Of a stretch of DNA of 64,000 bases, positions 36,345 through 50,432 are shown in pieces. The position numbers and the translations under genes are program-made. The stretch is from Paraflavitalea sp. CAU 1676 (lineage in GTDB: Bacteria > Bacteroidota > Bacteroidia > Chitinophagales > Chitinophagaceae): contig NZ_JARHUJ010000001.1 of NCBI RefSeq assembly GCF_029223285.1, positions 744,001 through 808,000 on the forward strand, in the 5' to 3' direction. The notes under the pieces were generated by a model. That model searched no databases and was not told where the DNA came from. It saw only the letters and a list, made by a program, of their open reading frames with translations. Each line of letters begins with the position of its first letter. Positions within the stretch are counted from its first letter, which is position 1.

Positions 36345-37064
36345 TCAGATCATTTTGTCCTTTACAATTTTCATCAGTTCCTGCCGGTAATTGTCGCCGG
36401 TAACAATTTCGGCCGTTATGCCTTTCAGCAATACACGATTTCCTTCTATTCCCGAGATGCGATCCAAAGCAATTATAAACGATTTGTGGATGCGCAGGAA
36501 CCTGCTGGAGGGCAGGCGGTCCTCTATTTCTTTCATACTGGCGTATACGAGTATTTTTCTGCCGCCTGTGTGAAATGCCACATAGTTCTTTCTGCCTTCG
36601 ATATAATCGATCTCTGCCAGGGTTATCCTGATCAGCTTCCCTTTCGATTCGGTCTTTACAAAGAGGTAGTCTTCTCCCGGCTGTTCCAGATCGGTGGCTG
36701 GTGCCGACGACTGCAATATGGCTGCTGCTTTTTGTACTGCCGTGAGGAAGCGTGGCAGACGGATCGGTTTAAGTAGATAGTCAACTACGTCGAGCTCGTA
36801 TCCATCCATGGCAAATTCGCTGTATGCCGTAGTGAGGATCACCCTGGTTTTTCCCTGGAGGGCACGGGCAAGGTCTATGCCCGACAGTTCGGGCATTTGT
36901 ATGTCGAGGAAGACCAGGTCGATCTTTTGAGCAGTCAGGATGCTTAGTGCTTCGAGCGGGTTGGTAGTGGATGCCGCCAGTTGCAGCAAGGGCGTTTGCC
37001 CGATATAGTATTTCAATATATCCAGTGCAGGCTGTTCATCATCGACTATCAGGCAACGTATCAT
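36345..37064 (-). CDS. LytTR-family response regulator
   Basis: 239 residues. The receiver domain has D8/D9 and phosphoacceptor D54 in FLDIQMPEL. The C-terminal LytTR DNA-binding domain (about 130-239) has IDYIEGRKNYVAFHT and FLRIHKSFIIALDRI. It is cotranscribed with the sensor kinase gene upstream (4-bp overlap). Two 12-bp direct repeats 21 bp apart upstream of the kinase gene are a likely binding site. Confidence 0.9.
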   Translation of the reverse strand: MIRCLIVDDEQPALDILKYYIGQTPLLQLAASTTNPLEALSILTAQKIDLVFLDIQMPELSGIDLARALQGKTRVILTTAYSEFAMDGYELDVVDYLLKPIRLPRFLTAVQKAAAILQSSAPATDLEQPGEDYLFVKTESKGKLIRITLAEIDYIEGRKNYVAFHTGGRKILVYASMKEIEDRLPSSRFLRIHKSFIIALDRISGIEGNRVLLKGITAEIVTGDNYRQELMKIVKDKMI

Positions 37065-38146
37065 AGCGCGTGGATGGTTAATTGGGTGGTATAGATATGT
37101 TGTTCATCTTTTATATCCAGACTGTATCGATCCTGGTAAGCGAGTTCCAGCCGCTTTTTGATATTATCCAGACCAATACCTGTAGACATTTCTTTGGGAC
37201 CCTGCTTCTTTTTGTTGCTGCAGTAGAACTGCAGGCTGGTGCCGTTTAGCGACAGGCGGATCGTAATCGGGTGCCCAGTACTTTTCAGGTCGCCGTGTTT
37301 AAAAGCATTCTCCACGAGCGTGATCAACACGAAGGGTATGATATGTACACCATTTACTACGCCATTCACTTCAAATTGCACCTGCAGGTCGTTGTTGAAT
37401 CGTAGCTGGTGTATCCTGATCACATTGCGCAAGTGCTCTATTTCGTCTTTGAGGGCGGCCTTGCCGTTGGTGAGGTTAGGATCGGTAAGGGCATAGCGCA
37501 TGATCTCGCTCAAAGTGAGTATCCCTTCCGCCAATTCGGGCGAGTAGGGCAGGGACCTGGCATAAAGGAAATTGAGGGTGTTGTGGAGAAAGTGGGGATT
37601 GATCTGTGCCTTCAGGAAGTTGAGGTTGGCATGAGCTTTCTCTATCTCAAGCTGCCCTTTTTGCGCTTCCAACAACTTGCGATGTTTTTTTTCATCGATC
37701 GTATAGACGATGAATGCAATCAACAGGGCTGGTGCGGCCGACAGGAACAGGCACATCACGAAAAAGACGATCATCGCTCCGGGCGACCAGACCCCTTCGA
37801 TGGTTCCGGGGCGCATGCGATCACTCACGGACATGTATACAAAATATACCGTGGTTAGCAGGAGCGTTGTTGCCAGGTAGTAAAAGAATCCTTTGCGCTG
37901 GCCAATGAGGTGATAGAAGAAATTAAGGGCGTAATAATAAAAGCCGGCAAAGAATATCGTATTGACTACCACTTTGATGTAGTAGTAGGTCGAGAACAAT
38001 AGCGAGAATTCGCGTGACCGGTCTTTAGTGGGAAACAGGTACAGGGAGGCTATGACCAATACGATCAGTATGGCGTAGGTGATGGCCACTGTGCCCAACA
38101 CAGTCCGAAAGGCAAAACGCCGGTTTGATGGTACCAGATATTTCAT
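37061..38146 (-). CDS. Sensor histidine kinase, LytS/YehU type
   Basis: 361 residues. Four transmembrane helices (about 15-165) are followed by a coiled helix and the His_kinase domain with INPHFLHNTLNFLYARS (phospho-His about 186). The ATPase domain has a VENAFKHG N-box and STGIGLDNIKKRLEL. There is no extracellular sensor domain, so it probably senses the membrane itself. It overlaps the regulator gene by 4 bp. It lies 127 bp after the giant ATPase gene of the membrane-stress operon. Confidence 0.9.
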   Translation of the reverse strand: MKYLVPSNRRFAFRTVLGTVAITYAILIVLVIASLYLFPTKDRSREFSLLFSTYYYIKVVVNTIFFAGFYYYALNFFYHLIGQRKGFFYYLATTLLLTTVYFVYMSVSDRMRPGTIEGVWSPGAMIVFFVMCLFLSAAPALLIAFIVYTIDEKKHRKLLEAQKGQLEIEKAHANLNFLKAQINPHFLHNTLNFLYARSLPYSPELAEGILTLSEIMRYALTDPNLTNGKAALKDEIEHLRNVIRIHQLRFNNDLQVQFEVNGVVNGVHIIPFVLITLVENAFKHGDLKSTGHPITIRLSLNGTSLQFYCSNKKKQGPKEMSTGIGLDNIKKRLELAYQDRYSLDIKDEQHIYTTQLTIHAL

Positions 38147-38273: not shown

Positions 38274-41200
38274 TTAATCGTTCTTCCTGATCGCGTTGGC
38301 AATGGCCTCAAGGTGTTCGTTGAATGAGTTCAGTTGAACCAGCATTTGTCCCGTGGTGTCGTTGGCCTCCATGCCTGCGAACTTGTTGTTCTTCCGGAAG
38401 GTTTCTTTGATGTGATTCCACCGTTCGGCTTCTGTCTCCGGCAAAAAGTCTGCTATCTCTTTTAGTTTAAGGAGGTTGGCTTCAGCATCGGAGGTGAGGG
38501 TTTGCGACTCCCCTTCGTAGTGCGACCGGATGAGCGTGTTGATCTCTTCGGGGTTCATCAACGGCACTACCTTCCCCACCATCTTGTTCATATTGCGGTA
38601 CGAACCCTGCAGTTTAAAAGAGGGCTCCATGCGATAGGCATCTTTCATGGCCGCGCTGGCGATGTATTGCTGGTTTACCTTAATGACTACTTCCCGTATC
38701 CGCAGTACATTCTTCAATACGGCGATGGCGTCATCGATCTCCTGCCGATTGTAATTGCCTTCCAGTTCCGGCAGCATCTCGCTGGCTGTTTCGAGGTGGT
38801 TGATCAGTTTGTACAGGTCCTCGAAACTACGATTGGCAATGCGCTGGAGGTAACTGTTCTCCGCCATGGCATTTTCGATAAGGCTCAGTTTAAATAGCTG
38901 ATCCGACCCGCCGATCACATCGCCCAGGTTGTATACATCTGCCCGGTTGGCGAGCATGTCCGGTATTTTGAATTGTTCGCCGCTCTCCGTGTAGGGGTTA
39001 CCCGCCATTACTACACAGAACCTTTTACCCCGCAGATCGTAGGTTTTGCTGTCTCCTTCGAATATGCCATCCATTTTACGCTGACCATCGGCCAGGGATA
39101 TGAATTTTTGCAGGAACTCGGCGCTGCAGTGCTGAATATCGTCAATGTATAACATGACGTTATCGGCCATTTCGAATGCCAGGTTGATCTTCTTCAATTC
39201 TTCCCTTGCACCGGAGGTAGTGGCTTCCTGCGGGTCGATGGAAGTAATGCGATGACCAATGGTAGGACCGTTGATCTTCACAAAATGAAGTCCCATGGTT
39301 TTTGCCAGGTACTCCATGAGGGTTGTTTTACCGTAGCCCGGTGGAGAAACCAGGAGCAGCATGCCCATCCTGGCTGTGCGTTTGTCATTTCCGGCTGCGC
39401 CGATCTGCTTGGCCATATTGGCCCCGATCAAGGGGAAATAGACCTCATTGATGAGGCGGTTGCGCACGAAGGAGCTCAGCACCTTCGGTTCAAACTCGCT
39501 TATCTTGAGTTGTTGCCGGTAAGTGGCGGCCAGTTGTTCCCTGAGCTGGTTGAAGGCACTAAAGGCCGGCACGGTCTGCGAGAAATACTGCTGCAGCCGG
39601 GCCATGAACCGGTGAAAGCTGAGGTTGTAGCGCGTGTCTTCTATTACAGGGTGTGTGCCTTTTAATCCTTCCAGTCGTAATTGGTCAGCTGCGGCCCTTT
39701 CTTTATAAGGGTGATCTTTAAACAGCAACAGGCATACGGTTTCATCCACATATTGCTGGTCGGCCTCTACGGGTTGTGTTTGCAGGAAAGCCTGCAGCCA
39801 GCTTTGGATGATGTAAAAGCGATCCATTACACTAAAGGCGGTATTGGTGACTTCCTGTTGAAATATCTCGGCCCGCTTTTTTGATTGAAGGTATTCTTTG
39901 AATGTTTTACGCAAATGAAGTGCCTGTTGACTGGCTGTAAAATTGCGGGTGGTGGACAGCTCCACATACAGATAATGCGCTACGGCGCCGGGTATTACTG
40001 TATCATAAACGATACCTGCCTGCTCGTAGCGTGCAGCGATCTCCTTTTCCACAAAGGCTGTTTGCCGGCTATTGGGAAAACTATCCTGGATGGCGTGGGT
40101 GGCCGTGATAAAGTGTTGCAGCTTGGTGCGTACTGGTTCTTCCAGCTGAAACCAGAACAATTGTGCGGCTACCCGCACAGCAGGGGCATGTTGCAGTATA
40201 CCCAGTTCTTCCTGGATTTTCTTAAGACCCTGGTAGATGATGCTGGCATCCGTATTGTGAACGCCCTTCAGGTAGGAGGCTGCGTAATCGCGTTCCGTTT
40301 GATCGTTCAGGAATCCTTCCGCATCCCAACCGGGTGGTTGCGACAGGCTCTCCAGAAAGGTTTTGTAGGCCAGGTACTCTGACCGGTAAACGGTTCCGTT
40401 CTCGGAGATGATCTCCTGCTCCCAGATGGCCCGGTGCTGGTAGAGCTCGGCGGCGGTAACCTCTTTGTAAAAGCTGGTGCCGATGAGGTGATAGAAGAGA
40501 CGCTCGTTGCGGCGCACGATGGTGAGGTCGAGTACCTGCTTGTTCACCACAAACTTGTAGGTGCCGAGGCTAATAATATTTTGACCGTCTACAAATAGAT
40601 CGGTTTTATCCTTGAGGTTGCGCAGGGCGTTCTCCTGGGCTACTTTTACGAGGTTCTCGAGATTCTCTGCTTTGGCCACATCGCCCAGGTCGCTCAGCTC
40701 CTGACTAAGACCGCGCAGTTTGTCGATCATGAGGTCGGTCGAGAAAAAGGCGTAGATGCTTTCCTTATTATCAAACGACTGTGCTTTGTTCTCTACATTC
40801 TTCAATACCCTCAGGCCAATCTGTTCCAGCGAAGCGGTGCGCTTGTTGATCTGGGCAATCAGCATTTCCTTTTTGCCGTTGAAGGCCTTGATCACTTCAT
40901 CGCGCTTATCGGCGATCTTATTGACGAACTCTTCAAAGTCGGCAAACTTACTTTCGAGCTCCTCTATCTGTATGCTGATCTTCGTGAAATAGTCTTCGCA
41001 TTTTTCTGGCGAGCTGGAGAGGTTTAGGAAGTTGACAATGCTCTGGTCGAGCAAGGTTATCTGTGCATAAAATTCGCCGGTTGATTCCTTCGACCGCAAC
41101 GCCGTGATGGTCCGTACGAGGTCGGCCTTCACTTCGTTCAGCGATGAGAAGATCAACGATATCTTTTCTACGATCCTGGTAGTTTGGGTGGTATCCTCGA

Positions 41201-43115
41201 TCTTGAGGCTGTTGAGGATGTCGATGAGCATTTCCAGTTCTTCCGCAATATCTTTTACCGCTTCTTCTACCGGTTGTGCGTCTATTACTTTCGAGATACC
41301 GCTTACTGCTTTCTTCTGTTCTGTTACCCTTGTTTCGTAGGGCGTCAGGGCATCTTCCTTCAACAGGAACTGGATGGTGTCCTGCGAAAGGGATGCGTTG
41401 TATTGCTGCAGGGTTTCTTTGAATCCGTTGACTGCCTGGGTATCGATGTACTTTACATTCAGCAGATCGATAACGGCGCCCTGCATGCTGCGGGTGGCGG
41501 CCAGGAGGTCGACCAACTGCTGCAAGGACGTGATGGATGCATTCTTGACGTCAATGACCAGTTGCTCCACCTTCTTCTGCATGGCCAGCAAAGCGTCTTT
41601 GGCATGCTGTCGTTGTGCCTGCACCTTGGCAAATTCATCGATGGCTGTATTGGCAATATCGCGGATCTGCGATAAAGGGGTGGCTATGTCGAAAGTAGCG
41701 GCATCTTTTAGCCAGAAGTAAGCGTCGATGATGTCGTTGGACCTTTTATGGATGTCCTCATAGAGGTCTTCGTAGCTGTCTTCCTTTTGCAGTAACTGTA
41801 TCACTTCCTGGCTTTCGCTCATGGCGCTCACAATATCCTTGTTGCCGATCTTGTACAGGACATTGTTGCTCATGGCGGTATTTTCCTTCAGGGTGAGCGT
41901 GTAGGGCGTCTGCCATATCTGCACCTGGTGATGCCTCACCGCTTCGATCTCTGAGCGGAAATAGACCAGCGTACCGTCGTTGAATACGGTGAATCCGTTA
42001 CAAATGATCGGCGTTTCTACCTGTTGCGCGATCATATTATACGACATCAACACATAGGTATTGGTCGTTTTCTGGTAGAAGATGTACAGAAAGTCCTCTC
42101 CATTGGGAGAAGCTATGCTGCGTACAAACTCCAGTTCAGTAATATCAGATTCGAAGATCTTGTACTCACCGTTTTGCAGGTAATAACCATTGGGAAAAAT
42201 GACGCCCTGGTTATCGGGCAGTAATATCCCGGCATCGAGCAGGTTGGGAATGGGGATTACCTGTTTGGTGCGTACGTTGAAGATGTAGGACCTGAATGTT
42301 TCCTGGTAGGGTTTTATTTTGATGGGGATCAGGTTGCCCAGGTCGGCATAATGATACTCCGCATCATCGAGTTGCTGGTCTTTGTTGAGCACGGGCTCGG
42401 CGTATATGCCTTTACCCGTATCGGTATTGTTCTCGATCTTGAAGGTAATATCGCCATGCAGGGCTTCAATAAATACTTTATTCAATACCGAGATATGCGG
42501 ATGCAGGCCCAGGCGGCGGTGGCTGAGGTCGGTCTTGATCCATTGGAAATCGTGCTGGGGTGATTTACGGACCTCATGTACACTGCGGTCATCGATATAG
42601 ATGAGCCGGTCGTTCTTGATGAGCCATTTGAATGCTTTGCGGTCGTCGGGGTTCTTACTCGTTTGGAAAATCATAAACAAATGATTTTCCGTTTTGGTGA
42701 ACCGCGCAAATATCGAATCCCGGTAGTACCGGTACAGGTTGGTGAAGTCGGTTACGAAGTTGGCGTCTTCGATCAGCGTGAGCGGCTGCGACTCAAAATG
42801 GTTGCCGGTGAACTTGTAGATACTGAATACGTCACTGAGCTTAATATCCTCGCGCAGGCCGAAATGTACGTTGTAGGCAAAGATGGTGAGGTCGCCAAAG
42901 GCCATGATGCCGCGCGCCACTCCGTTGTTTTCGGTAGTGATGCGTTGGTTGGCGATCAACTGAAAGCCGGAGGAATTGAATATTTCCTTGCGGGCTGTAT
43001 TCAGTTTGGCCAACCGCTGTGCCAGATCGAGCCGCTGATCGTTTAACCGGTTACGGATAATTTCATACGTGCCCGAATCCAGTACCGCTGTCATGTTGTT
43101 CTCAGTGCCTGCCAT
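38274..43115 (-). CDS. Giant DUF3686-type AAA+ ATPase (called DNA repair ATPase)
   Basis: 1613 residues. The N-terminal ~470 residues form a beta-rich domain of the DUF3686 type. A long predicted coiled-coil centre runs from about 490 to 860. An AAA+ module follows: Walker A is VSPPGYGKTTLMEYLA (about 1258), Walker B is VMLYIDDIQHC (about 1322), the sensor is VVMAGNPYTESGEQF (about 1371) and LANRADVYNLGD is a possible arginine finger. The family name suggests DNA repair, but no DNA-binding motif is visible. It is the last gene of the PspA-flotillin operon, which suggests a membrane role. Confidence 0.8.
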   Translation of the reverse strand: MAGTENNMTAVLDSGTYEIIRNRLNDQRLDLAQRLAKLNTARKEIFNSSGFQLIANQRITTENNGVARGIMAFGDLTIFAYNVHFGLREDIKLSDVFSIYKFTGNHFESQPLTLIEDANFVTDFTNLYRYYRDSIFARFTKTENHLFMIFQTSKNPDDRKAFKWLIKNDRLIYIDDRSVHEVRKSPQHDFQWIKTDLSHRRLGLHPHISVLNKVFIEALHGDITFKIENNTDTGKGIYAEPVLNKDQQLDDAEYHYADLGNLIPIKIKPYQETFRSYIFNVRTKQVIPIPNLLDAGILLPDNQGVIFPNGYYLQNGEYKIFESDITELEFVRSIASPNGEDFLYIFYQKTTNTYVLMSYNMIAQQVETPIICNGFTVFNDGTLVYFRSEIEAVRHHQVQIWQTPYTLTLKENTAMSNNVLYKIGNKDIVSAMSESQEVIQLLQKEDSYEDLYEDIHKRSNDIIDAYFWLKDAATFDIATPLSQIRDIANTAIDEFAKVQAQRQHAKDALLAMQKKVEQLVIDVKNASITSLQQLVDLLAATRSMQGAVIDLLNVKYIDTQAVNGFKETLQQYNASLSQDTIQFLLKEDALTPYETRVTEQKKAVSGISKVIDAQPVEEAVKDIAEELEMLIDILNSLKIEDTTQTTRIVEKISLIFSSLNEVKADLVRTITALRSKESTGEFYAQITLLDQSIVNFLNLSSSPEKCEDYFTKISIQIEELESKFADFEEFVNKIADKRDEVIKAFNGKKEMLIAQINKRTASLEQIGLRVLKNVENKAQSFDNKESIYAFFSTDLMIDKLRGLSQELSDLGDVAKAENLENLVKVAQENALRNLKDKTDLFVDGQNIISLGTYKFVVNKQVLDLTIVRRNERLFYHLIGTSFYKEVTAAELYQHRAIWEQEIISENGTVYRSEYLAYKTFLESLSQPPGWDAEGFLNDQTERDYAASYLKGVHNTDASIIYQGLKKIQEELGILQHAPAVRVAAQLFWFQLEEPVRTKLQHFITATHAIQDSFPNSRQTAFVEKEIAARYEQAGIVYDTVIPGAVAHYLYVELSTTRNFTASQQALHLRKTFKEYLQSKKRAEIFQQEVTNTAFSVMDRFYIIQSWLQAFLQTQPVEADQQYVDETVCLLLFKDHPYKERAAADQLRLEGLKGTHPVIEDTRYNLSFHRFMARLQQYFSQTVPAFSAFNQLREQLAATYRQQLKISEFEPKVLSSFVRNRLINEVYFPLIGANMAKQIGAAGNDKRTARMGMLLLVSPPGYGKTTLMEYLAKTMGLHFVKINGPTIGHRITSIDPQEATTSGAREELKKINLAFEMADNVMLYIDDIQHCSAEFLQKFISLADGQRKMDGIFEGDSKTYDLRGKRFCVVMAGNPYTESGEQFKIPDMLANRADVYNLGDVIGGSDQLFKLSLIENAMAENSYLQRIANRSFEDLYKLINHLETASEMLPELEGNYNRQEIDDAIAVLKNVLRIREVVIKVNQQYIASAAMKDAYRMEPSFKLQGSYRNMNKMVGKVVPLMNPEEINTLIRSHYEGESQTLTSDAEANLLKLKEIADFLPETEAERWNHIKETFRKNNKFAGMEANDTTGQMLVQLNSFNEHLEAIANAIRKND

Positions 43116-43200
43116 GCGTTCAATAAGATATGAGTTCTATGTAAGCGCCGGCAGCTTTTACAATGACTGCCGGCGATGTGATCAGGTTATTTCCTTGAGT

Positions 43201-45234
43201 TTATTGCAGCTTTTTATTCGATAAGCCCAGGCTGCTGGCCAGGTTGGCCAGGCTGAGCAGGGAGGAACGATCGCCTTCGGTGCTCTGTTGCTGCATCTTC
43301 AGGATCAGACTGGATATCGTAAGATTCTTGATGTCGTTGGTAGAAATATTGTATTTCTCAGCAAATTCCTTGATGCGTGCCAGCAGATCGCCGCCGCCAT
43401 TGGCGCCATCGCCCAGCAAAGCATTCTTGATCTGTGTGGCGTTTTCGCTTTCGTTCACCAATCGATCGAATCCTTTCGCATTGGATATCTGGTTGATGAT
43501 GTTCTGGAAGAACATGGTTTCGCCGCCAACGATATCGATCCTGGCCGATTTCAGGGCCTCGGCCAGTACATCAGCCTGCGCGTTGGCAATATCCTTTTGT
43601 ATGTTGATCTGTGCCAGTGCGATGTCTTTTTCTTTCTGCAGGAGTAGCTTGAACTCTTCGTGGTCTTTGCCCACAGCGTCCAGCTTCTTCATGGCTTCTG
43701 CCTTTTCCTGGATACCGGCTGCTTCCGCAAGGGCTTTTTCCTTTGTCACTTCGGCCTGGGTCAATCCTTCTTTTCGTTTTGCATCGGCGAGTTTTTCAAT
43801 CACGGTAGCGTCTACGGTACCCTGTCTTTCGGCAGCTTCCGCTTTCGCCATCATTACCTCTGCTTCTGACAATCCAAGGGTCGCTTCTTCACGGGCCTGT
43901 GCTTCGGCCAGTATTTTACGGGCTTCTGCCTGTTTAACGGCTGCTTCTTTTTTCGCTTCGGCGTCGATGATCAACTGCTTGGCTTTTTCTTCTGCGGCTT
44001 TCTTATCAGCTTCAGCGGCTTTTACCGTATAGATCAGCTTTTCTTCTGCCTGGCGGCTGGCTTGCGTGATGCCGACCGTTTTCTCCCGCTCTACGGCGCG
44101 GAATGCTTCGAGGTCTTTTACTCCCTGTTGTTCCTCCACCACTCCTTTCTCGAGGCGTACGCGTTCGCGGATCACGTCCTGGATGTTCTTGCGTTCTACT
44201 TCCACTGTTTTTTCCTTCTCGATCTGTGCGAGGGTGACGATCTTTTCACGCTCAGTGGCTTCGAGGGCGCGGTCTTTCTCAACTCTTTCCGTTTCTACGG
44301 CGTCGGTCCTTTGCTTGTTCTTTTCGGCGATGATGATCTGGCGCAGTTTGTTCTCTTCCTGTACGGCCAGCGACTCATCGGTCCTGATCTTGACGGTTTG
44401 CGCTTTCAGGCGTTCTTCTTCGCGCACCTTGATGATCTCTGCATTTTCGCGGGCGCGGATATTGTCGATCTCTCTTTTTTGTTTCTCTTCTTTCTCTGCC
44501 ATCTGGCGGTCGAGTTCGAGGATCGCTTCACGGGCTTCCACATCCTGCTTCTTGATCACCTTTTCTTCTTCACGCTTGATGAGGTTGGCTTTGATATTTT
44601 GCTCGGCGGTGAGTTCTGTGATCTTTTTGATACCCTGGGAATCGAGGATGTTCTGCGCGCTCAGGAACTTGATCTCGGTTTGTTCGAGGTAGTCGATGGC
44701 GCAGTCGTCGAGGATATAACCATTGAGGTCGGTGCCGATGATGTTCAGGATCTCGGTCCTGAATTCGCGGCGGGCTTCATACAGTTCTATGAAGTCGAAT
44801 TTCTTACCTACCGTTTTGAGGGCTTCGGAGAATTTGGCTTCGAAGAGGTTGCGGAGGGTGTCGACATCACTGGCGCGGTCGGTGCCGATGATCTGGGCAA
44901 CATTGAGTACATCGTCGATGTTCTTGTTAACCCGTACAAAGAAGGCGACCTTGATATCGGCCCGGATATTGTCTTTACAGATCAGGCCATCGTTTTCCAT
45001 CCGGTCGATCTGCAGTTTTTTGACGGATATATCCATGATCTCCATCTTGTGGAGGATGGGGATCACATACATACCTCTGTTGAAGGCTACTTTGCCGCCT
45101 CCCACACCAGTACGCACGATGGCCTTGCCCTGCGGTATCTTTTTATAAAAAGTGGCGAATGCAAACAGTAAGATAAAGATCAGAAATACGATTCCTCCGA
45201 TAAGCAGCAGGCTGATTCCTCCTAAGGCTCCCAT
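43201..45234 (-). CDS. Flotillin-like SPFH protein (YqiK type)
   Basis: 677 residues. An N-terminal membrane helix (ISLLLIGGIVFLIFILLFAF) is followed by an SPFH/Band 7 domain (about 30-200, with KIPQGKAIVRTGVGGGKV and YILDDCAIDYLEQTEI). A long Glu/Ala/Lys/Arg coiled coil runs to about 580 with repeated KAEA/AEAKKEA units, and the C-terminus is a small region with an LNLAS-like end. YqiK/flotillins assemble into membrane microdomain cages. It follows the YqiJ-like gene by 58 bp, the usual pair order. Confidence 0.92.
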   Translation of the reverse strand: MGALGGISLLLIGGIVFLIFILLFAFATFYKKIPQGKAIVRTGVGGGKVAFNRGMYVIPILHKMEIMDISVKKLQIDRMENDGLICKDNIRADIKVAFFVRVNKNIDDVLNVAQIIGTDRASDVDTLRNLFEAKFSEALKTVGKKFDFIELYEARREFRTEILNIIGTDLNGYILDDCAIDYLEQTEIKFLSAQNILDSQGIKKITELTAEQNIKANLIKREEEKVIKKQDVEAREAILELDRQMAEKEEKQKREIDNIRARENAEIIKVREEERLKAQTVKIRTDESLAVQEENKLRQIIIAEKNKQRTDAVETERVEKDRALEATEREKIVTLAQIEKEKTVEVERKNIQDVIRERVRLEKGVVEEQQGVKDLEAFRAVEREKTVGITQASRQAEEKLIYTVKAAEADKKAAEEKAKQLIIDAEAKKEAAVKQAEARKILAEAQAREEATLGLSEAEVMMAKAEAAERQGTVDATVIEKLADAKRKEGLTQAEVTKEKALAEAAGIQEKAEAMKKLDAVGKDHEEFKLLLQKEKDIALAQINIQKDIANAQADVLAEALKSARIDIVGGETMFFQNIINQISNAKGFDRLVNESENATQIKNALLGDGANGGGDLLARIKEFAEKYNISTNDIKNLTISSLILKMQQQSTEGDRSSLLSLANLASSLGLSNKKLQ

Positions 45235-45292
45235 AATGTGTAGTTATTTTAAGGGTTTAAACAGTTTATTTGTCAGGGTATGTAAAATTGTG

Positions 45293-45979
45293 CTATACAA
45301 CGTTAGAAAGGTTGATCTCTGGTACAACCAGGTAATATTTTTTATCGGCCGATTCGTCGGCGATCATTACTTCGGCATCGTAGGCGATGGTTTCGCCGGT
45401 CTTGCTCTTTACATTGACGCGGATCACATCGCTTTGAACCTTCAGTTCGGCCGCGCCGATGGTATCGCCGGATATGGTAGAACGCATACGGGCGATTCTG
45501 CCTAACAGTTCAGTTGGTTCTTCTCCGTTATAGCCCATGGCTTTGTAGATTTTGACCAATGGTTTGGTGGCAAACCGGGTGATGAGGAAGGCCACCAGGA
45601 ATGCCGGGAGCAAGATGAAAACAGACTTCCAACCCCAACTGGCAAGCCCCAGTGTAACCGAGCTTACGAGGGTTACGATCCACGCTATGAATTTGAAGGT
45701 GGAGTAAACTACCATAAAAGGCACCTTGCCGATGTTCACAAACTCCAAAGCTTTTTGGTAAAAAGGCTTGTCTTCTACAGCGTCACCCACCTCAGCATCT
45801 GAATCCACATCGGTATCCAGGTCGGCGCCATCGAAATCGAGGTCGGTTTCGACACCGCCATCGCCGAAAAAGTCGCCGGCTATAAAGGTAAATATCCAAT
45901 AGAGGGCTGTTATGCCGGTTAGCACCGTCATGATCGCATTACTCAGTGGATGGAACAACAGGTCGAATAGTCCGGTCAT
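45293..45979 (-). CDS. YqiJ-like OB-fold membrane protein
   Basis: 228 residues. Three membrane segments lie near 12-34, 85-110 and 117-136. Between the first two is an Asp-rich loop (residues 36-70, 15 Asp or Glu of 35, with TDLDFDGADLDTDVDSD). A C-terminal soluble beta-rich domain (about 150-228) fits the OB-fold of the YqiJ/DUF1449 family. YqiJ partners with YqiK flotillin. Its gene starts 3 bp after the pspA stop, so translation is tightly linked. Confidence 0.85.
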   Translation of the reverse strand: MTGLFDLLFHPLSNAIMTVLTGITALYWIFTFIAGDFFGDGGVETDLDFDGADLDTDVDSDAEVGDAVEDKPFYQKALEFVNIGKVPFMVVYSTFKFIAWIVTLVSSVTLGLASWGWKSVFILLPAFLVAFLITRFATKPLVKIYKAMGYNGEEPTELLGRIARMRSTISGDTIGAAELKVQSDVIRVNVKSKTGETIAYDAEVMIADESADKKYYLVVPEINLSNVV

Positions 45980-45982
45980 AGT

Positions 45983-46696
45983 TTACTGTGGATTGTCGGG
46001 TATACCCAGTTTATCCTTGATCGCTTTAAGATCCTTTTCGATCGACAGGGTATCATCTTTCACTAATTTATTCAATTCGTCTTTCAGGCTATTTTTATCC
46101 CTGGCTATTTCTCCATACGCCTGGGCCAATGCCTCCTGGTCTTCCACTTTATTCTTCATGCGCTCGAGCATGGCGATGGTGCCGTTATTATCGAGCTGGG
46201 CCAGTTGTTTATTGACCTGCTCGGTTGCCTTGCTCACTTTTACCCTGGCCTTCAGCGTACGCAATTCTTTTTCCCATTTCTCCAGGTTGTCTTTCAATAT
46301 CTCCGTGTTCTTCAGCATTTCCCTCGACGACTGCTGCAAGGTAATAACCTGCAGGCCTAAATCTTCGGATTCTGCATAAAATTTCCGGCGCAGGGAAAGG
46401 GCTTCTTTAGCCAGTTCTTCGGCCTTGCCAATTTCGACCTGGCCTGCCTGTGCTTTTTGCATGATCAAGATCGCTTTTTCTGCATAAACCAGCGATTCTT
46501 TCTGACATTGTTGCTGTTCATTTTCAGTGCGTATAGCCAGGGCCTTTACCTTGGCGTAGGCCTCGGTGGCTTCGGTGAGGTCTTGCCGTAATTCCCGCAG
46601 GCCCTGTTCCGTCATTTTGACGGGGTCTTCCATTTTGTCAACGGCAGCATGTATTTCGGCCTGGCCTATCCTGAAAAGTCGTTTGAAGATGTTCAT
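45983..46696 (-). CDS. pspA: PspA/IM30 family membrane-stress protein
   Basis: 237 residues, almost entirely helical. It begins MNIFKRLFRIGQAEIHAAVDKMEDPVKM, the amphipathic membrane-binding helix and start of the PspA core. A long heptad hairpin follows. PspA/IM30 forms ESCRT-III-like filaments that protect or reshape damaged inner membrane. No PspF, PspB or PspC is present. It sits between the YbjN-like gene and the YqiJ-like gene in one operon. Confidence 0.9.
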   Translation of the reverse strand: MNIFKRLFRIGQAEIHAAVDKMEDPVKMTEQGLRELRQDLTEATEAYAKVKALAIRTENEQQQCQKESLVYAEKAILIMQKAQAGQVEIGKAEELAKEALSLRRKFYAESEDLGLQVITLQQSSREMLKNTEILKDNLEKWEKELRTLKARVKVSKATEQVNKQLAQLDNNGTIAMLERMKNKVEDQEALAQAYGEIARDKNSLKDELNKLVKDDTLSIEKDLKAIKDKLGIPDNPQ

Positions 46697-46738
46697 GATA
46701 GAATATTTTTAGATGTTAGTATGACAGGTTTTGTGGCG

Positions 46739-47131
46739 TCACAATTTTGAAAAGTCTATGATCTGCTGGCTGTATTCGCTCAGCAACAGGCCGAGGGAGT
46801 TAAGCGCTCCCTCGAACTCATTGAAATCGATGTTTTCCAGTTGCATGGTATACCTGAAAAGCACCTTATTGCCTTCTTCGTTGATGACGAAAGCCCCGTG
46901 GATGGTATCCCGGTTCTTTTGCAGCAGCTTTTTGAACATGCCGCCATGGTCGTCTTTAAAAGAAAACAGGAACTGCTCCATGATCAGGATGGGTGGGGCG
47001 ATGCCAATGATCAGGTTATGAATGCCATCGGGTTGGTTGTCGATCTTCAGGATGCCCGTAGGTTCATGCTTATACAGGATCCTGCACTGGAGTCGTTTAG
47101 CAAATCCTTCTATGGTGTCGATGTAATTCAT
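46739..47131 (-). CDS. YbjN/CesT-like small chaperone-fold protein
   Basis: 130 residues with the alpha/beta pattern of the YbjN/CesT (type III chaperone-like) fold: an N-terminal helix (IDTIEGFAKRL), strands with ILKIDNQPDG and FLFSFKDDHGG, and a closing helix (FEGALNSLGLLLSEYS). Databases often call such proteins Tir chaperone. In this operon it is the first gene and may bind a PspA or flotillin partner. The start at 47131 is chosen; an in-frame ATG at 47188 lies within the promoter. Confidence 0.7.
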   Translation of the reverse strand: MNYIDTIEGFAKRLQCRILYKHEPTGILKIDNQPDGIHNLIIGIAPPILIMEQFLFSFKDDHGGMFKKLLQKNRDTIHGAFVINEEGNKVLFRYTMQLENIDFNEFEGALNSLGLLLSEYSQQIIDFSKL

Positions 47132-47157: not shown

Positions 47158-47188
47158 CAAATCTAAAACATCTGTCGCTTGAGTGCAA
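47158..47188 (-). promoter_or_regulatory. Promoter of the PspA-flotillin operon
   Basis: On the minus strand TTG (47188-47186), a 20-nt spacer and TAGATTTG (47165-47158) match the Bacteroidota -33/-7 promoter almost perfectly. It lies 27 bp before the start of the first gene. Confidence 0.75.
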
Positions 47189-47206
47189 AAAATATTAGCA
47201 CTTAGG
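47178..47206. promoter_or_regulatory. Inverted repeat, probable XRE operator
   Basis: CTTGAGTGC (47178-47186) and GCACTTAGG (47198-47206) pair in 7 of 9 positions around an 11-nt spacer, with a perfect AGTGC/GCACT core. The left arm covers the -33 TTG of the operon promoter, and the site lies between the divergent operon and regulator genes. Confidence 0.55.
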
Positions 47207-47236: not shown

Positions 47237-47914
47237 ATGTCGAAAATAGGAGTCAATATCAAGAAGATCAGGACCACCAAAGGCCTTAGTCAGCAGGCTT
47301 TTGCCGACCTATTTGAGCTTACCAGGGGGAATATTTCCTCGTACGAAGAAAACAGGGCCGAGCCGCGGATCGAAACCCTGGTCAAGGTTGCAAATTATTT
47401 TGGCATACCGTTAGAGCAATTTGTGGGTCAAAACCTGACAATCAACGAAATATTGAAGTTTAATGGCGACAAGCTGATCGGGGAGGAGAACCATATCATT
47501 AACCTGCAATTGCGGGAGGTTCCCTTTATCAACGATAATATTTATATGAAATGCTGCTACCGGGAGCTTGCTTTCAATGAATGGGCAGCTTTTCCGCGGC
47601 TGGTGCTCCCGGAAACGAACAACCACAACCTGGTGGCGCTTACTTTCAACCAGAATATCCCCCACCATGCAGCTACACCCGCCTGGCAAATGCACGATGT
47701 GTTGGTGTTTGAAGAAGTGACCCAGCAAAATATCCATCTATGCGACAAGAAAACTGGCCTTTTCACGGCAGAGCGGGAGATCATGCTCGGCCAGTTCGAC
47801 ATGAAAGGGGCGGTGCTCGACCTGGTGTTAAATGACTTTAAGAAACAGCGATTCGATTTCAAGCATGCCCGGACTTTCTGGAAGATTTTCGCCGTGTATC
47901 AGCACGCCGTCTGA
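47237..47914 (+). CDS. XRE-family regulator with S24-like C-terminal domain
   Basis: 225 residues. The N-terminal helix-turn-helix (about 5-60) has GLSQQAFADLFELTRGNISS. The C-terminal part looks like a LexA/S24 fold (HDVLVFEEVTQQ resembles the GDxVxV strand), but the Ser of the usual GDSM motif is absent; the equivalent place reads FNQNIPHHA. It is therefore probably a ligand or stress sensor without self-cleavage. It is divergent from the PspA-flotillin operon across a 105-bp gap holding an inverted repeat. The start at 47237 fits the HTH. Confidence 0.8.
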   Translation: MSKIGVNIKKIRTTKGLSQQAFADLFELTRGNISSYEENRAEPRIETLVKVANYFGIPLEQFVGQNLTINEILKFNGDKLIGEENHIINLQLREVPFINDNIYMKCCYRELAFNEWAAFPRLVLPETNNHNLVALTFNQNIPHHAATPAWQMHDVLVFEEVTQQNIHLCDKKTGLFTAEREIMLGQFDMKGAVLDLVLNDFKKQRFDFKHARTFWKIFAVYQHAV

Positions 47915-48203: not shown

Positions 48204-50432
48204 ATGGATACTGTAGCTGCGATACCGAAATACAATTTGAACGAGGAGCAGGAGAAGAAGCTGATACTTCGTGAATACCGTGCCTTGTTACGCTCTCTGA
48301 AGCCTAAATTAAAGCCCGGCGATAAGGAATTGTTGCGTCATGCCTTTGAAATGGCTGCCGATGCGCATAAAACAATGCGTCGCAAGAGCGGTGAACCCTA
48401 TATCCTACACCCGCTGGCGGTTGCCCGTATCGGGGTGGAGGAGATCGGACTTGGTGTGCGCTCGTCCATATGCGCCCTGCTGCACGACACCGTAGAAGAT
48501 ACTGATATCACCCTGGAAGATATTGAAAGGGAGTTTGGTTCGGAGATCGCCCGTATTGTAGACGGACTTACCAAGATCGCCAACGTTATCGACGTCAATG
48601 CCTCTCAACAGGCAGAGAACTTCAAAAAGATATTGCTGACCCTAACCGATGACCCCCGGGTTATCCTCATTAAGCTGAGCGACCGGCTGCACAATATGCG
48701 CACGCTCGACAGCATGAAACGGGAAAAGCAACTTAAGATCGCTTCCGAAACCGTGTATGTGTACGGCCCCCTGGCTCACCGGATGGGTTTGTACAATATC
48801 AAAACGGAAATGGAAGACCTTTCCATGAAGTACCTTGAACCGGAGGCTTACCGCGAAATTGCCCGTAAGCTGGCAGAGACCAAGCGCGAGCGCTCGAGGT
48901 ATATCAATGAGTTTATCCGCCCGATCCGGGAAAAGCTGGAAAAGATCAATTTCGAGTTCGAAATATATGGCCGCCCCAAGAGCATCCATTCCATTTGGAA
49001 TAAGATGAAGAAAAAGGGCGTGTCGTTTGAAGAGGTATATGACCTCTTCGCCATCCGGGTGATCCTCAATACCACACCGGATAAAGAAAAAGAAGCCTGT
49101 TGGAAGGTGTATTCCATCATTACCGACGAGTACACGCCTTCTCCCGAACGTTTGCGCGACTGGCTCAGTAATCCCAAATCGAATGGTTATGAAGCCTTGC
49201 ACACTACCGTAATGGGCCCTCAGGGTAAGTGGGTGGAAGTGCAGATACGCACCAAGCGGATGAATGAGATTGCTGAGAAAGGTTTGGCTGCCCACTGGAA
49301 ATACAAAGAAGGCACCAACGATGAGAGCCGTTTCGATAAATGGTTCCAGCAGATCCGCGAAGTGCTCAATAATCCTGATAATGATTCCATCGACTTCCTC
49401 CAGGACTTCAAGACCAGCTTCCTGGCAGAGGAGATCTATGTCTATACGCCAAAGGGAGATGTGAAAATGTTACCGGTCGGTTCCACGGCACTGGACTTTG
49501 CGTTCTCCATCCACAGTGCGGTGGGCTCTCAGTGTATCGGCGCCAAGGTGAACCACAAACTAGTGCCCATTAGCCATAAGCTGCGCAGCGGCGACCAGGT
49601 GGAGATCATTACTTCTGCCAAGCAGAAACCTTCGGAGGACTGGATCAATATCGTCGTTACCGCCAAGGCGAAAAGCAAGATCAAAGATGCGCTGAAGGAA
49701 GAAAAGCGCAAGGTGGCCGACGAAGGCAAATACACCTTGCAGCGCAGGGTGGAGGGTATGGGGGCAGCTTTCAACCAGCATAATGTTGATGTGCTCACTG
49801 CCTTCTATAAGTTGCAATCGCCCCTCGACCTGTATTACCAGATTTCTGTCAAAGCGCTGGATCTTAAAGAACTGAAGGAGTTCCAGGTGCTGGGCGATAA
49901 GCTGGAGCCACCTAAGCCCGTAAAGCCGGTGGTGGAGATCAAGACGGAACATGCAGGTATTCCTAAAAAAGATGCTGAACTGATCATCTTTGGTGAAAGC
50001 AGCGATAAGATCGTATACACGCTGGCCAATTGTTGTAAGCCTATCCCGGGCGATGATGTATTTGGTTTCGTGACCACCGGAAAGGGGCTTACCATTCACC
50101 GCACCAATTGTCCCAATGCTACCAAGTTACTTTCCAATTACGGGCACCGCGTAGTGAAGACCAAGTGGGCCAGAAATAAAGAGATTTCCTTCCTTACCGG
50201 TTTAAAGATCGTAGGCATCGACGATGTGGGTGTTATCCACAAGATCACCAACCTGATATCGGGCGAAATGAAGATCAACATCAGCGCTATGACCATCGAA
50301 GCAAAGGATGGTTTGTTCTATGGCAATGTGAAGGTCTATGTTCATGATAAGGATGAGCTGGACGACCTGGTAGACAGGCTGAAAAGATTGCCCGGTATTG
50401 AAACGGTCGACAGGTATGATGCAGAAGCCTAA
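48204..50432 (+). CDS. Bifunctional (p)ppGpp synthetase/hydrolase (Rel/SpoT)
   Basis: 742 residues. The hydrolase HD domain (about 50-200) has YILHPLAVARI and ALLHDTVEDTDI. The synthetase domain has YGRPKSIHSIWNKM, NGYEALHTTVMGP and VQIRTKRMNEIAEKG. A TGS domain follows (VYTPKGDVKMLPVGSTALDF), then a zinc-finger-like and a C-terminal ACT domain. With both domains intact it can both make and degrade the alarmone that controls growth and stress. A hairpin with a T-run follows about 100 bp downstream. Confidence 0.95.
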   Translation: MDTVAAIPKYNLNEEQEKKLILREYRALLRSLKPKLKPGDKELLRHAFEMAADAHKTMRRKSGEPYILHPLAVARIGVEEIGLGVRSSICALLHDTVEDTDITLEDIEREFGSEIARIVDGLTKIANVIDVNASQQAENFKKILLTLTDDPRVILIKLSDRLHNMRTLDSMKREKQLKIASETVYVYGPLAHRMGLYNIKTEMEDLSMKYLEPEAYREIARKLAETKRERSRYINEFIRPIREKLEKINFEFEIYGRPKSIHSIWNKMKKKGVSFEEVYDLFAIRVILNTTPDKEKEACWKVYSIITDEYTPSPERLRDWLSNPKSNGYEALHTTVMGPQGKWVEVQIRTKRMNEIAEKGLAAHWKYKEGTNDESRFDKWFQQIREVLNNPDNDSIDFLQDFKTSFLAEEIYVYTPKGDVKMLPVGSTALDFAFSIHSAVGSQCIGAKVNHKLVPISHKLRSGDQVEIITSAKQKPSEDWINIVVTAKAKSKIKDALKEEKRKVADEGKYTLQRRVEGMGAAFNQHNVDVLTAFYKLQSPLDLYYQISVKALDLKELKEFQVLGDKLEPPKPVKPVVEIKTEHAGIPKKDAELIIFGESSDKIVYTLANCCKPIPGDDVFGFVTTGKGLTIHRTNCPNATKLLSNYGHRVVKTKWARNKEISFLTGLKIVGIDDVGVIHKITNLISGEMKINISAMTIEAKDGLFYGNVKVYVHDKDELDDLVDRLKRLPGIETVDRYDAEA

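What the first reader, a model, noticed from the sequence alone, without database searches (positions are those of the whole stretch)
38274..47131. Five-gene membrane-stress operon: YbjN/CesT-like, PspA, YqiJ-like, flotillin, giant AAA+ ATPase
The gene order with small gaps (3 bp between pspA and the YqiJ-like gene) shows one transcriptional unit. PspA/IM30 and YqiK flotillin are both membrane-organising proteins, yet here they are joined to a 1613-residue ATPase whose family name suggests DNA repair. The context suggests the ATPase disassembles or remodels PspA or flotillin assemblies, much as Vps4 acts on ESCRT-III. The role of the ATPase is inference. Related PspA-flotillin associations are described in comparative genomics, but this exact five-gene unit with its own XRE regulator may not be characterised.
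Basis: partly seen in the sequence, partly recalled or inferred. Interest (0 to 1): 0.78.

Follow-up and report, generated by a model that had tools for sequence, protein, structure and literature searches.

The report
Flotillin-linked giant ATPase with PspA add-on
This is an already described, stress-type gene cluster in which a very large predicted motor protein travels with its own kind of flotillin (a membrane-scaffold protein) while the PspA membrane-repair protein looks like an optional extra, which tells experimenters which partner to test first.

Summary
The five genes are real, where stated, with gaps of 42, 3, 58 and 85 bp. The exact unit is in print as a predicted operon (Ravi et al. 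2024), so the operon is not new. The tools change the reading. (1) Flotillin, not PspA, is the ATPase's constant partner: of 71 ATPase loci with at least 6 kb upstream (from the 80 nearest of 542), 70 have YqiJ-flotillin upstream and the last genome has the flotillin elsewhere; 54 have CesT-PspA. Of the 17 genomes without that linked pair, 12 have no PspA above cut-off. (2) ATPase-linked flotillins share a C-terminal motif absent from 12 of 12 others. (3) The AAA+ module fails marks of Vps4's clade. (4) The XRE-CesT intergenic regions share a 17-bp palindrome (49 of 55; shuffle mean 0.32), often with a second copy inside xre. Best model: a flotillin-scaffolded, non-proteolytic AAA+ machine, formally like HflKC-FtsH, with CesT-PspA as a detachable module under a dedicated repressor. 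The Vps4-on-PspA analogy is weakened, not excluded. Nothing was tested at the bench.

The parts
46739..47131 (-). CesT/Tir-YbjN-like protein (130 aa from the ATG at 47131); partner of PspA
   Evidence: PF22550 E 4.7e-45, PF10722 E 9e-6; in the 71 loci CesT and PspA are both present (54) or both absent (17)
45983..46696 (-). PspA/IM30 family protein, 237 aa
   Evidence: PF04012 E 2.7e-38
45293..45979 (-). YqiJ/NfeD-like membrane protein, 228 aa
   Evidence: PF21001 E 0.016; hhalign to E. coli YqiJ probability 89, E 2e-6
43201..45234 (-). Flotillin (YqiK-type SPFH protein), 677 aa, of a group that goes with the ATPase
   Evidence: hhalign to YqiK E 7e-40; trees
43435..43539 (-). Flotillin C-terminal motif (about residues 566-600, IDIVGGExxFF...); candidate docking tail (inference)
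   Evidence: regular expression, chosen after seeing the sequences, in 24 of 26 linked and 0 of 12 unlinked flotillins
38274..43115 (-). Giant AAA+ ATPase, 1613 aa (DUF3686, DUF7902, AAA)
   Evidence: PF12458 E 9.7e-164, PF25472 E 2.9e-25, PF00004 E 6.6e-9; two AlphaFold models
41715..43028 (-). DUF3686 region of the ATPase (residues 30-467): predicted beta-propeller
   Evidence: model pLDDT 84.9; many Foldseek hits are beta-propeller proteins, all at low TM-scores
38586..39368 (-). AAA+ core of the ATPase (about residues 1250-1510): Walker A GYGKTT 1260-1265, Walker B DD 1325-1326, sensor 1 N1373, Arg finger R1391, sensor 2 R1507
   Evidence: these residues identical in 57 of 57 aligned sequences; motif names assigned by position
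47237..47914 (+). Divergent XRE-family regulator (225 aa from the ATG at 47237)
   Evidence: PF01381 E 9.9e-13; divergent XRE in 54 of 54 loci with CesT-PspA and in 2 of 17 without
47184..47200 (.). Putative operator O1, palindrome TGCAAAAAATATTAGCA; only perfect match to TGCWAAW5TTWGCA in the 8.84-Mb genome
47158..47165 (-). Putative Bacteroidota -7 box TAGATTTG, 18 nt after O1, whose end overlaps a -33 TTTG
   Evidence: promoter consensus recalled
47389..47405 (.). Putative operator O2 inside xre, one mismatch, 205 bp from O1
   Evidence: by itself not above the genome-wide control

Best explanation
The operon joins two separable modules under one repressor. Core module: YqiJ-like protein, a dedicated flotillin and the giant ATPase. 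The flotillin forms a membrane-bound oligomeric scaffold helped by the YqiJ protein; the ATPase docks on it, perhaps through the flotillin's special C-terminal tail and its own propeller/coiled-coil part, and its AAA+ ring uses ATP to remodel clients brought to that patch of membrane. It is a non-proteolytic counterpart of HflKC-FtsH. Optional module: the CesT-like chaperone and PspA, brought under the same control so that PspA repair polymers can be formed at, or handled by, the same site during envelope stress. The XRE protein represses both directions from a palindrome over the promoter, in many relatives with a second site inside its own gene. Shown: gene content, linkage, the group-specific tail motif, invariant nucleotide-binding motifs, the conserved palindrome. 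Inferred: docking, oligomeric state, client, repression, stress signal.
For: Flotillin and YqiJ upstream in the same direction in 70 of 71 loci with at least 6 kb upstream; in the 71st (L083) an orthologous flotillin is elsewhere in the genome. In 296 genomes of the phylum sample the orthologous flotillin (over 690 bits) and the ATPase occur in the same 8 genomes; the flotillins of 11 other genomes score at most 308.5 bits. CesT-PspA lacks that tie: of 19 genomes with a CesT_Tir_1 hit over 150 bits, 11 have no ATPase, and their 11 loci carry CesT-PspA with no YqiJ, flotillin or ATPase hit in the stretch fetched (one contig, L202, has only 1.1 kb on one side). Of 17 genomes with the ATPase but no linked pair, 12 have no PspA above cut-off, six of them isolates by record title. 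Flotillin lies next to the ATPase in 10 of 10 plasmid-collection records examined, from Bacteroidota, Pseudomonadota, Actinomycetota and Deinococcota; PspA within 9 kb upstream in 2 of 10. Linked flotillins lie on one side of a branch, support 100/99, with a tail motif in 24 of 26 linked and 0 of 12 unlinked. Key AAA+ residues invariant in 57 of 57. Palindrome in 49 of 55 intergenic regions, shuffle mean 0.32, maximum 3. TAnnTTTG within 45 nt beyond it in 23 of 49, shuffle mean 1.5, maximum 5; in 20 of these at 16-18 nt. L067 and L070 lack CesT-PspA but keep XRE and the palindrome before YqiJ.
Against: No physical contact was tested; linkage shows shared function, not docking. The 100/99 tree used full-length columns, including the tail itself, and treekit warned of long branches; with SPFH columns only and six new unlinked flotillins the split has weak support (60/90). 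The 80 named loci are the nearest of 542 or more and mostly Bacteroidota, and related loci inflate every count. The other six PspA-less genomes are MAGs, which may be incomplete. In 26 of 49 regions no TAnnTTTG follows the palindrome within 45 nt, so the promoter geometry is not general. Genome-wide, sites with up to one mismatch (6) hardly exceed the backward-pattern control (4). ATPase activity, hexamer formation, membrane location and XRE repression are all inferred.
Confidence: 0.6

Rival explanations
1. Vps4-like: the ATPase disassembles or remodels PspA (ESCRT-III-like) polymers, with flotillin as a mere anchor.
For: PspA linked in 54 of 71 loci. Ravi et al. 2024 draw the general parallel of PspA/AAA+ pairs with ESCRT-III and suggest that abbreviated operons may work with PspA encoded elsewhere; 5 of 17 genomes without the linked pair do have PspA elsewhere. 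By sequence the best PDB hits of the AAA part are p97-type classic AAA, over the P-loop only; Msp1 and spastin stand at Foldseek ranks 47 and 48.
Against: The core persists in genomes with no PspA above cut-off (12 of 17). Vps4-clade marks fail: sensor-2 Arg present in 57 of 57, residue before the Arg finger N or S and not R, a predicted pre-sensor-1 hairpin, no MIT hit.
Confidence: 0.15
2. The ATPase acts on flotillin itself: it takes apart or reshapes the flotillin cage to open or relocate the microdomain; PspA is an independent co-regulated partner.
For: Same linkage and tail evidence as the best model.
Against: Nothing in these data separates 'flotillin as substrate' from 'flotillin as platform'.
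Confidence: 0.17
3. A mobile conflict or defence system using flotillin-PspA to guard the membrane.
For: Patchy spread (2 of 5 genomes of the genus; 8 of 296 in the phylum sample) and presence on plasmids such as pQBR103 and a Hymenobacter plasmid.
Against: PADLOC gave only generic HTH hits and one weak AAA hit; gene order is stable and no variable effector gene was seen; scanned neighbours in the window are a Usp, a LytTR/kinase pair and a RelA/SpoT gene, not defence genes.
Confidence: 0.05
4. DNA repair ATPase, as the family label says.
For: Pfam and RefSeq labels; RuvB is among the Foldseek matches and RuvB_N matches 57 of 57, though only the P-loop region.
Against: No DNA-repair gene in the unit; the linked genes are flotillin and YqiJ types in every phylum examined; no paper of the library holds DUF3686.
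Confidence: 0.03

Closest known systems
CesT/Tir-PspA operon group with band-7/flotillin, YqiJ and 'novel AAA+ ATPase' (Ravi et al. 2024, PMC11237479; section 19 and passages read)
   Same: Exactly these five components; abbreviated flotillin-YqiJ-(ATPase) operons are also noted there, with the remark that they might function with PspA encoded elsewhere.
   Different: What was read there does not describe the XRE regulator or operator (0 occurrences of 'xre' and 'operator' in the main text), the ATPase-linked flotillin tail, or genomes with the core and no PspA. Its supplements were not read.
Pseudomonas aeruginosa bac operon bacABCDEF (PMC10948618; passages and part 1 of the discussion read)
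   Same: CesT-like (DUF2170) BacA, PspA-type BacB and an SPFH protein (PA14_16180, PMC13086221 passage) in an operon shown by RT-PCR.
   Different: BacA is DUF2170; a sigma-54 site is proposed; the main text has 0 occurrences of 'ATPase'.
HflK/HflC-FtsH
   Same: SPFH scaffold plus AAA+ motor at the membrane (PMC13220708, start of abstract in a search listing).
   Different: FtsH is a membrane-bound protease; this ATPase has no protease family hit; a membrane segment in it was not tested.
E. coli yqiJ-yqiK and alphaproteobacterial pspA-yqiJ-flotillin operons
   Same: YqiJ-flotillin pair, with or without PspA.
   Different: No ATPase beside them; their flotillins lack the tail motif.
Vps4-ESCRT-III
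   Same: General idea of an AAA+ protein acting on a membrane-remodelling polymer family to which PspA is related.
   Different: Different AAA+ features; PspA not always present.

Membership tests
CesT/Tir-PspA-band-7-AAA+ operon group (Ravi et al. 2024) | Adjacent CesT/Tir and PspA genes | tested here: met
CesT/Tir-PspA-band-7-AAA+ operon group (Ravi et al. [quoted passage not shown]
   profile match to YqiK over residues 23-445; no direct Pfam hit for the window protein; TM segment not tested by a tool
CesT/Tir-PspA-band-7-AAA+ operon group (Ravi et al. 2024) | AAA+ ATPase with N-terminal beta-propeller and coiled coil | tested here: met
   predicted strands 52-402, long helices 419-839, AAA+ at the C terminus; prediction only
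CesT/Tir-PspA-band-7-AAA+ operon group (Ravi et al. 2024) | YqiJ/YuaF-like 3TM protein | tested here: met
   hhalign to YqiJ E 2e-6; TM count not tested
Vps4 / meiotic clade AAA | Extra Arg directly before the Arg finger | tested here: not met
   N in 55 and S in 2 of 57; criterion from PMC5039278; the finger itself is assigned by motif
Vps4 / meiotic clade AAA | Classic clade lacks the sensor-2 Arg | tested here: not met
   R1507 in 57 of 57, at the start of a predicted helix
Vps4 / meiotic clade AAA | N-terminal MIT domain | tested here: not met
   no MIT hit in the Pfam scan at E 0.1; N terminus predicted as helix plus beta-rich region
MoxR clade AAA+ | Insert in helix 2 | tested here: inconclusive
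   no strand predicted in that stretch, though the top Foldseek hits include MoxR-type CbbQ and NorQ; criterion from PMC7159879
MoxR clade AAA+ | VWA-domain partner gene | tested here: not met
   none among the 10 window proteins scanned; rest of genome not searched
[quoted passage not shown]
   model strands 518-523 and 526-531 before the sensor-1 strand; prediction only
SPFH-AAA+ protease pair (HflKC-FtsH) | Protease domain in the AAA+ protein | tested here: not met
   no such Pfam hit
Canonical pspFABC system | Adjacent PspB, PspC, PspF partners | tested here: not met
   absent among the 10 window proteins scanned
Flotillin/YqiK SPFH family | Cage or oligomer in the membrane | not testable with these tools
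   only single chains could be predicted

The most novel reading that the evidence does not exclude
A widespread SPFH-AAA+ machine of its own kind: a dedicated flotillin group whose unique C-terminal tail carries a giant propeller/coiled-coil AAA+ motor without protease, spread over at least Bacteroidota, Planctomycetota, Calditrichota, Pseudomonadota, Actinomycetota and Deinococcota, to which PspA-CesT has been added as an interchangeable module, and which in Bacteroidota is switched by a two-operator XRE repressor.
Probability: 0.42. Interest if true: 0.72.

Novelty: new member of a known kind. Interest (0 to 1): 0.45.

Why it matters
How bacterial flotillins do work, and how PspA is handled where no known AAA+ partner exists, are open questions. 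If the ATPase is the flotillin's motor, one protein pair makes 'what does a flotillin microdomain do' biochemically testable, and the label 'DNA repair ATPase', seen on 4 of the 12 plasmid-collection records with the gene, would be replaced. The conserved palindrome gives a handle to induce the system.

Tried and rejected
PspA as the ATPase's obligate substrate: weakened by genomes without PspA. Extra conserved operon members: genes in the wider gaps differ from lineage to lineage by eye. The LytTR/histidine-kinase pair downstream as part of the unit: a hit within 3 kb downstream in 2 of 80 loci (L076, L089; some loci have short flanks). Defence system: PADLOC gave nothing specific. Other palindromes of the own genome as a regulon: the four one-mismatch sites outside this locus have no XRE, CesT, PspA, YqiJ, flotillin or ATPase hit in the 7-8 kb around them, so they look like background. 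Literature (open-licence PMC library only): DUF3686 in 0 papers; PspA with DUF3686 in 0; 'DNA repair ATPase' with flotillin in 0; a Bacteroidota-centred search listed 12 of 756 papers, none of the 12 holding PspA or flotillin. Solved structures: no hit of the flotillin profile at 1e-5, none of the window flotillin alone at 0.01, and for the ATPase only short hits around the P-loop. Sigma-70 promoter and terminator scans: no excess over shuffles. Rows dropped before counts: 9 of 80 loci with under 6 kb upstream; fragments and ATPases over 85% identical to one kept, leaving 56 relatives for the models; flotillin tree from every fourth linked sequence plus 10 plasmid-collection ones (30 linked, 12 unlinked, of which L127 is a contig-end fragment), then from every fifth plus 10, without L113 and without six of the first unlinked set but with six new ones (26 linked, 12 unlinked).
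Full report
What is there. The window (G000:C1:744001-808000 of an 8.84-Mb genome) holds, on the - strand, genes for a CesT/Tir-YbjN-like protein, PspA, a YqiJ-like membrane protein, a flotillin and a 1613-residue protein with DUF3686, DUF7902 and AAA regions. The nearest named relatives by ATPase are Chitinophagaceae (80 and 83% identity in the best segment), so the host is probably of that family (inference). The gaps are 42, 3, 58 and 85 bp. The flotillin has no direct Pfam hit but matches E. coli YqiK over residues 23-445 with hhalign probability 100.

Is it conserved? Yes. In 7 of 7 further DUF3686-bearing genomes of the 296-genome phylum sample the six genes (divergent XRE, CesT, PspA, YqiJ, flotillin, ATPase) have the same order and orientation. 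Of these, 71 have at least 6 kb upstream of the ATPase: 54 have all six genes, 14 have YqiJ-flotillin-ATPase only, 2 have XRE-YqiJ-flotillin-ATPase, and 1 has the ATPase alone; in some, other genes lie between flotillin and ATPase. In the last genome an orthologous flotillin lies elsewhere. Of the 9 short contigs, 3 show flotillin upstream; of the other 6, 3 genomes have the flotillin on another stretch and 3 (MAGs) gave none.

Two modules. CesT and PspA are both present (54 of 71) or both absent (17 of 71). In the 17 genomes without the linked pair, PspA is over Pfam's cut-off in 5 and not in 12 (one of the 12 has a hit below cut-off); six of those 12 are isolates by title and six are MAGs. 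This bears on the suggestion of Ravi et al. that abbreviated operons may use PspA encoded elsewhere: some can, most of these cannot. Conversely, CesT_Tir_1 is over cut-off in 36 of 296 genomes; 19 of these score over 150 bits and the next is at 40.5. Of the 19, 11 lack the ATPase, and their loci carry the CesT-PspA pair with no YqiJ, flotillin or ATPase hit in the stretch fetched (L202 is on a short contig). The orthologous flotillin (over 690 bits) and the ATPase coincide in 8 of 8 genomes, the flotillins of the 11 other genomes scoring at most 308.5 bits. Twelve records of the plasmid collection carry the ATPase. Ten were examined by profile: flotillin directly upstream 10 of 10, YqiJ 9 of 10, PspA 2 of 10 within 9 kb. 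The eleventh, Deinococcus actinosclerus, has its flotillin in place and was used as linked in the second tree; the twelfth, a second Proteus record, was not examined. In pQBR103 the triad ends a long YjfI-PspA-polyamine operon. Three alphaproteobacterial plasmids have PspA-YqiJ-flotillin without the ATPase beside them.

A dedicated flotillin. In a tree of 30 linked and 12 unlinked flotillins (YqiK included) the label needs one change, support 100/99; this tree used full-length columns and carries long-branch warnings. On SPFH columns only, with 26 linked and 12 unlinked, six of the latter new, it is still one change but support is 60/90. The tail tells them apart: a motif around IDIVGGExxFF, chosen after seeing the sequences, occurs in 24 of 26 linked and 0 of 12 unlinked. 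A profile of the C-terminal part hits 9 of 10 plasmid-record linked flotillins at whole-sequence E 0.01 or better (in L107 and L114 the stretch printed lies in the coiled coil, so these count for less) and 0 of 12 unlinked (best 3.2; one of the 12, L127, is cut off before the tail). The tail is the obvious candidate for docking; that is inference.

The ATPase. Two AlphaFold models cover it: residues 1-912 (pLDDT 84.9, pTM 0.60) and 830-1613 (pLDDT 87.6, pTM 0.75), from alignments of 57 sequences. The N part is a helix, a beta-rich stretch 52-402 with many beta-propeller proteins among its Foldseek matches, all at low TM-scores and beside long helical proteins, then long helices to 839. This agrees with the 'coiled-coil and beta-propeller' of Ravi et al.. 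The C part ends in an AAA+ core whose Walker A, Walker B (DD), sensor-1 Asn, Arg finger and sensor-2 Arg are identical in 57 of 57. Against criteria read in PMC5039278 (passages) it fails Vps4's marks: the sensor-2 Arg is present, there is no Arg before the finger, and a hairpin precedes sensor 1 in the model. The top 50 Foldseek hits include CbbQ and NorQ (MoxR type), RuvB, Lon and MCM, with Msp1 and spastin at ranks 47-48. By sequence the best PDB hits are p97-type but only around the P-loop. The helix-2 insert that defines MoxR (PMC7159879 passages) is not visible. The subclade is therefore open.

The switch. The intergenic region holds TGCTAATATTTTTTGCA (47184-47200). TGC-W11-GCA occurs in 49 of 55 XRE-CesT intergenic regions, the window's included (200 shuffles: mean 0.32, maximum 3). 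In the 1.81 Mb of the 80 loci there are 80 sites; together, 51 lie in the intergenic region, 28 inside xre and one (L087) elsewhere; two control patterns gave 0. In the own genome TGCWAAW5TTWGCA has one perfect match, this one, and five with one mismatch, of which one lies inside xre at 47389; the backward-pattern control gave 4, and the other four sites have none of the six gene families near them, so one-mismatch sites as such are background. Inside xre an exact site is found in 28 of 57 genes and a one-mismatch site in a further 18, at two alternative places in different lineages; synonymous shuffling gives a mean of 1.2 genes with an exact site (maximum 5 in 300 shuffles), so the DNA and not only the protein seems constrained, although the genes are related. 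TAnnTTTG lies within 45 nt beyond the palindrome in 23 of 49 regions (shuffle mean 1.5), 20 of them at 16-18 nt; 26 of 49 have none. Where present, the palindrome covers the -33 TTTG of a Bacteroidota-type promoter (consensus recalled). That is the geometry of a repressor. L067 and L070, which lack CesT-PspA, keep XRE and the palindrome in front of YqiJ: the same regulator can govern the core.

How it most likely works, and what is known. See the best explanation. The five-gene unit and the abbreviated forms are in print (Ravi et al. 2024, section 19 read; supplements not read); the nearest experimental relative is the P. aeruginosa bac operon (passages and discussion part 1). A knock-out of a COG2268 SPFH-type gene in Shewanella, predicted to share an operon with a DUF1449 gene, altered iron metabolism and peroxide sensitivity (PMC1468410 title and passages, which do not mention an ATPase). 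Nothing found in the library treats DUF3686. The verdict: observation right, operon already described, Vps4 analogy weakened, and the flotillin-ATPase pairing and the XRE palindrome are the testable points.

Noticed in passing
L109 (pQBR103 83443-106350): Composite operon YjfI-PspA-rhomboid-DUF2491-DUF350-DUF1190-glutathionylspermidine synthase-YqiJ-flotillin-ATPase, joining two of Ravi et al.'s operon groups on one plasmid.
   Followed up: partly
L106 (Hymenobacter sp. DG25B plasmid): The whole six-gene unit with its LexA/XRE-type regulator is plasmid-borne, so it may move as a block.
   Followed up: partly
L196-L206: Stand-alone CesT-PspA pairs of Bacteroidota often have a further small open frame (about 130-215 aa) just upstream in the same direction; not identified.
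   Followed up: no
L053-L055, L071 (Aquimarina): Between flotillin and ATPase lie small proteins (82-88 aa) sharing a GIKxEPVSEExL-like stretch and a hydrophobic C terminus, and between PspA and YqiJ a YbjQ-like gene (recalled resemblance).
   Followed up: no
L218 (E. coli IncK2/Z plasmid pH2332-107): An OB-fold gene and a flotillin gene sit just before a type IV pilus cluster; of 318 plasmid records with a flotillin match, 228 are Escherichia and 260 are predicted conjugative.
   Followed up: no
L107, L108 (NZ_OL790812.1, NZ_LT559118.1): Records of 4.09 and 11.85 Mb are filed as plasmids; their size suggests mislabelled chromosomes.
   Followed up: no
36345-38146: A LytTR response regulator and histidine kinase follow the ATPase in the same direction, 127 bp away; not conserved there in relatives.
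   Followed up: yes
48204-50432: A RelA/SpoT-type (p)ppGpp synthetase/hydrolase gene lies just beyond xre in the same direction as xre.
   Followed up: no
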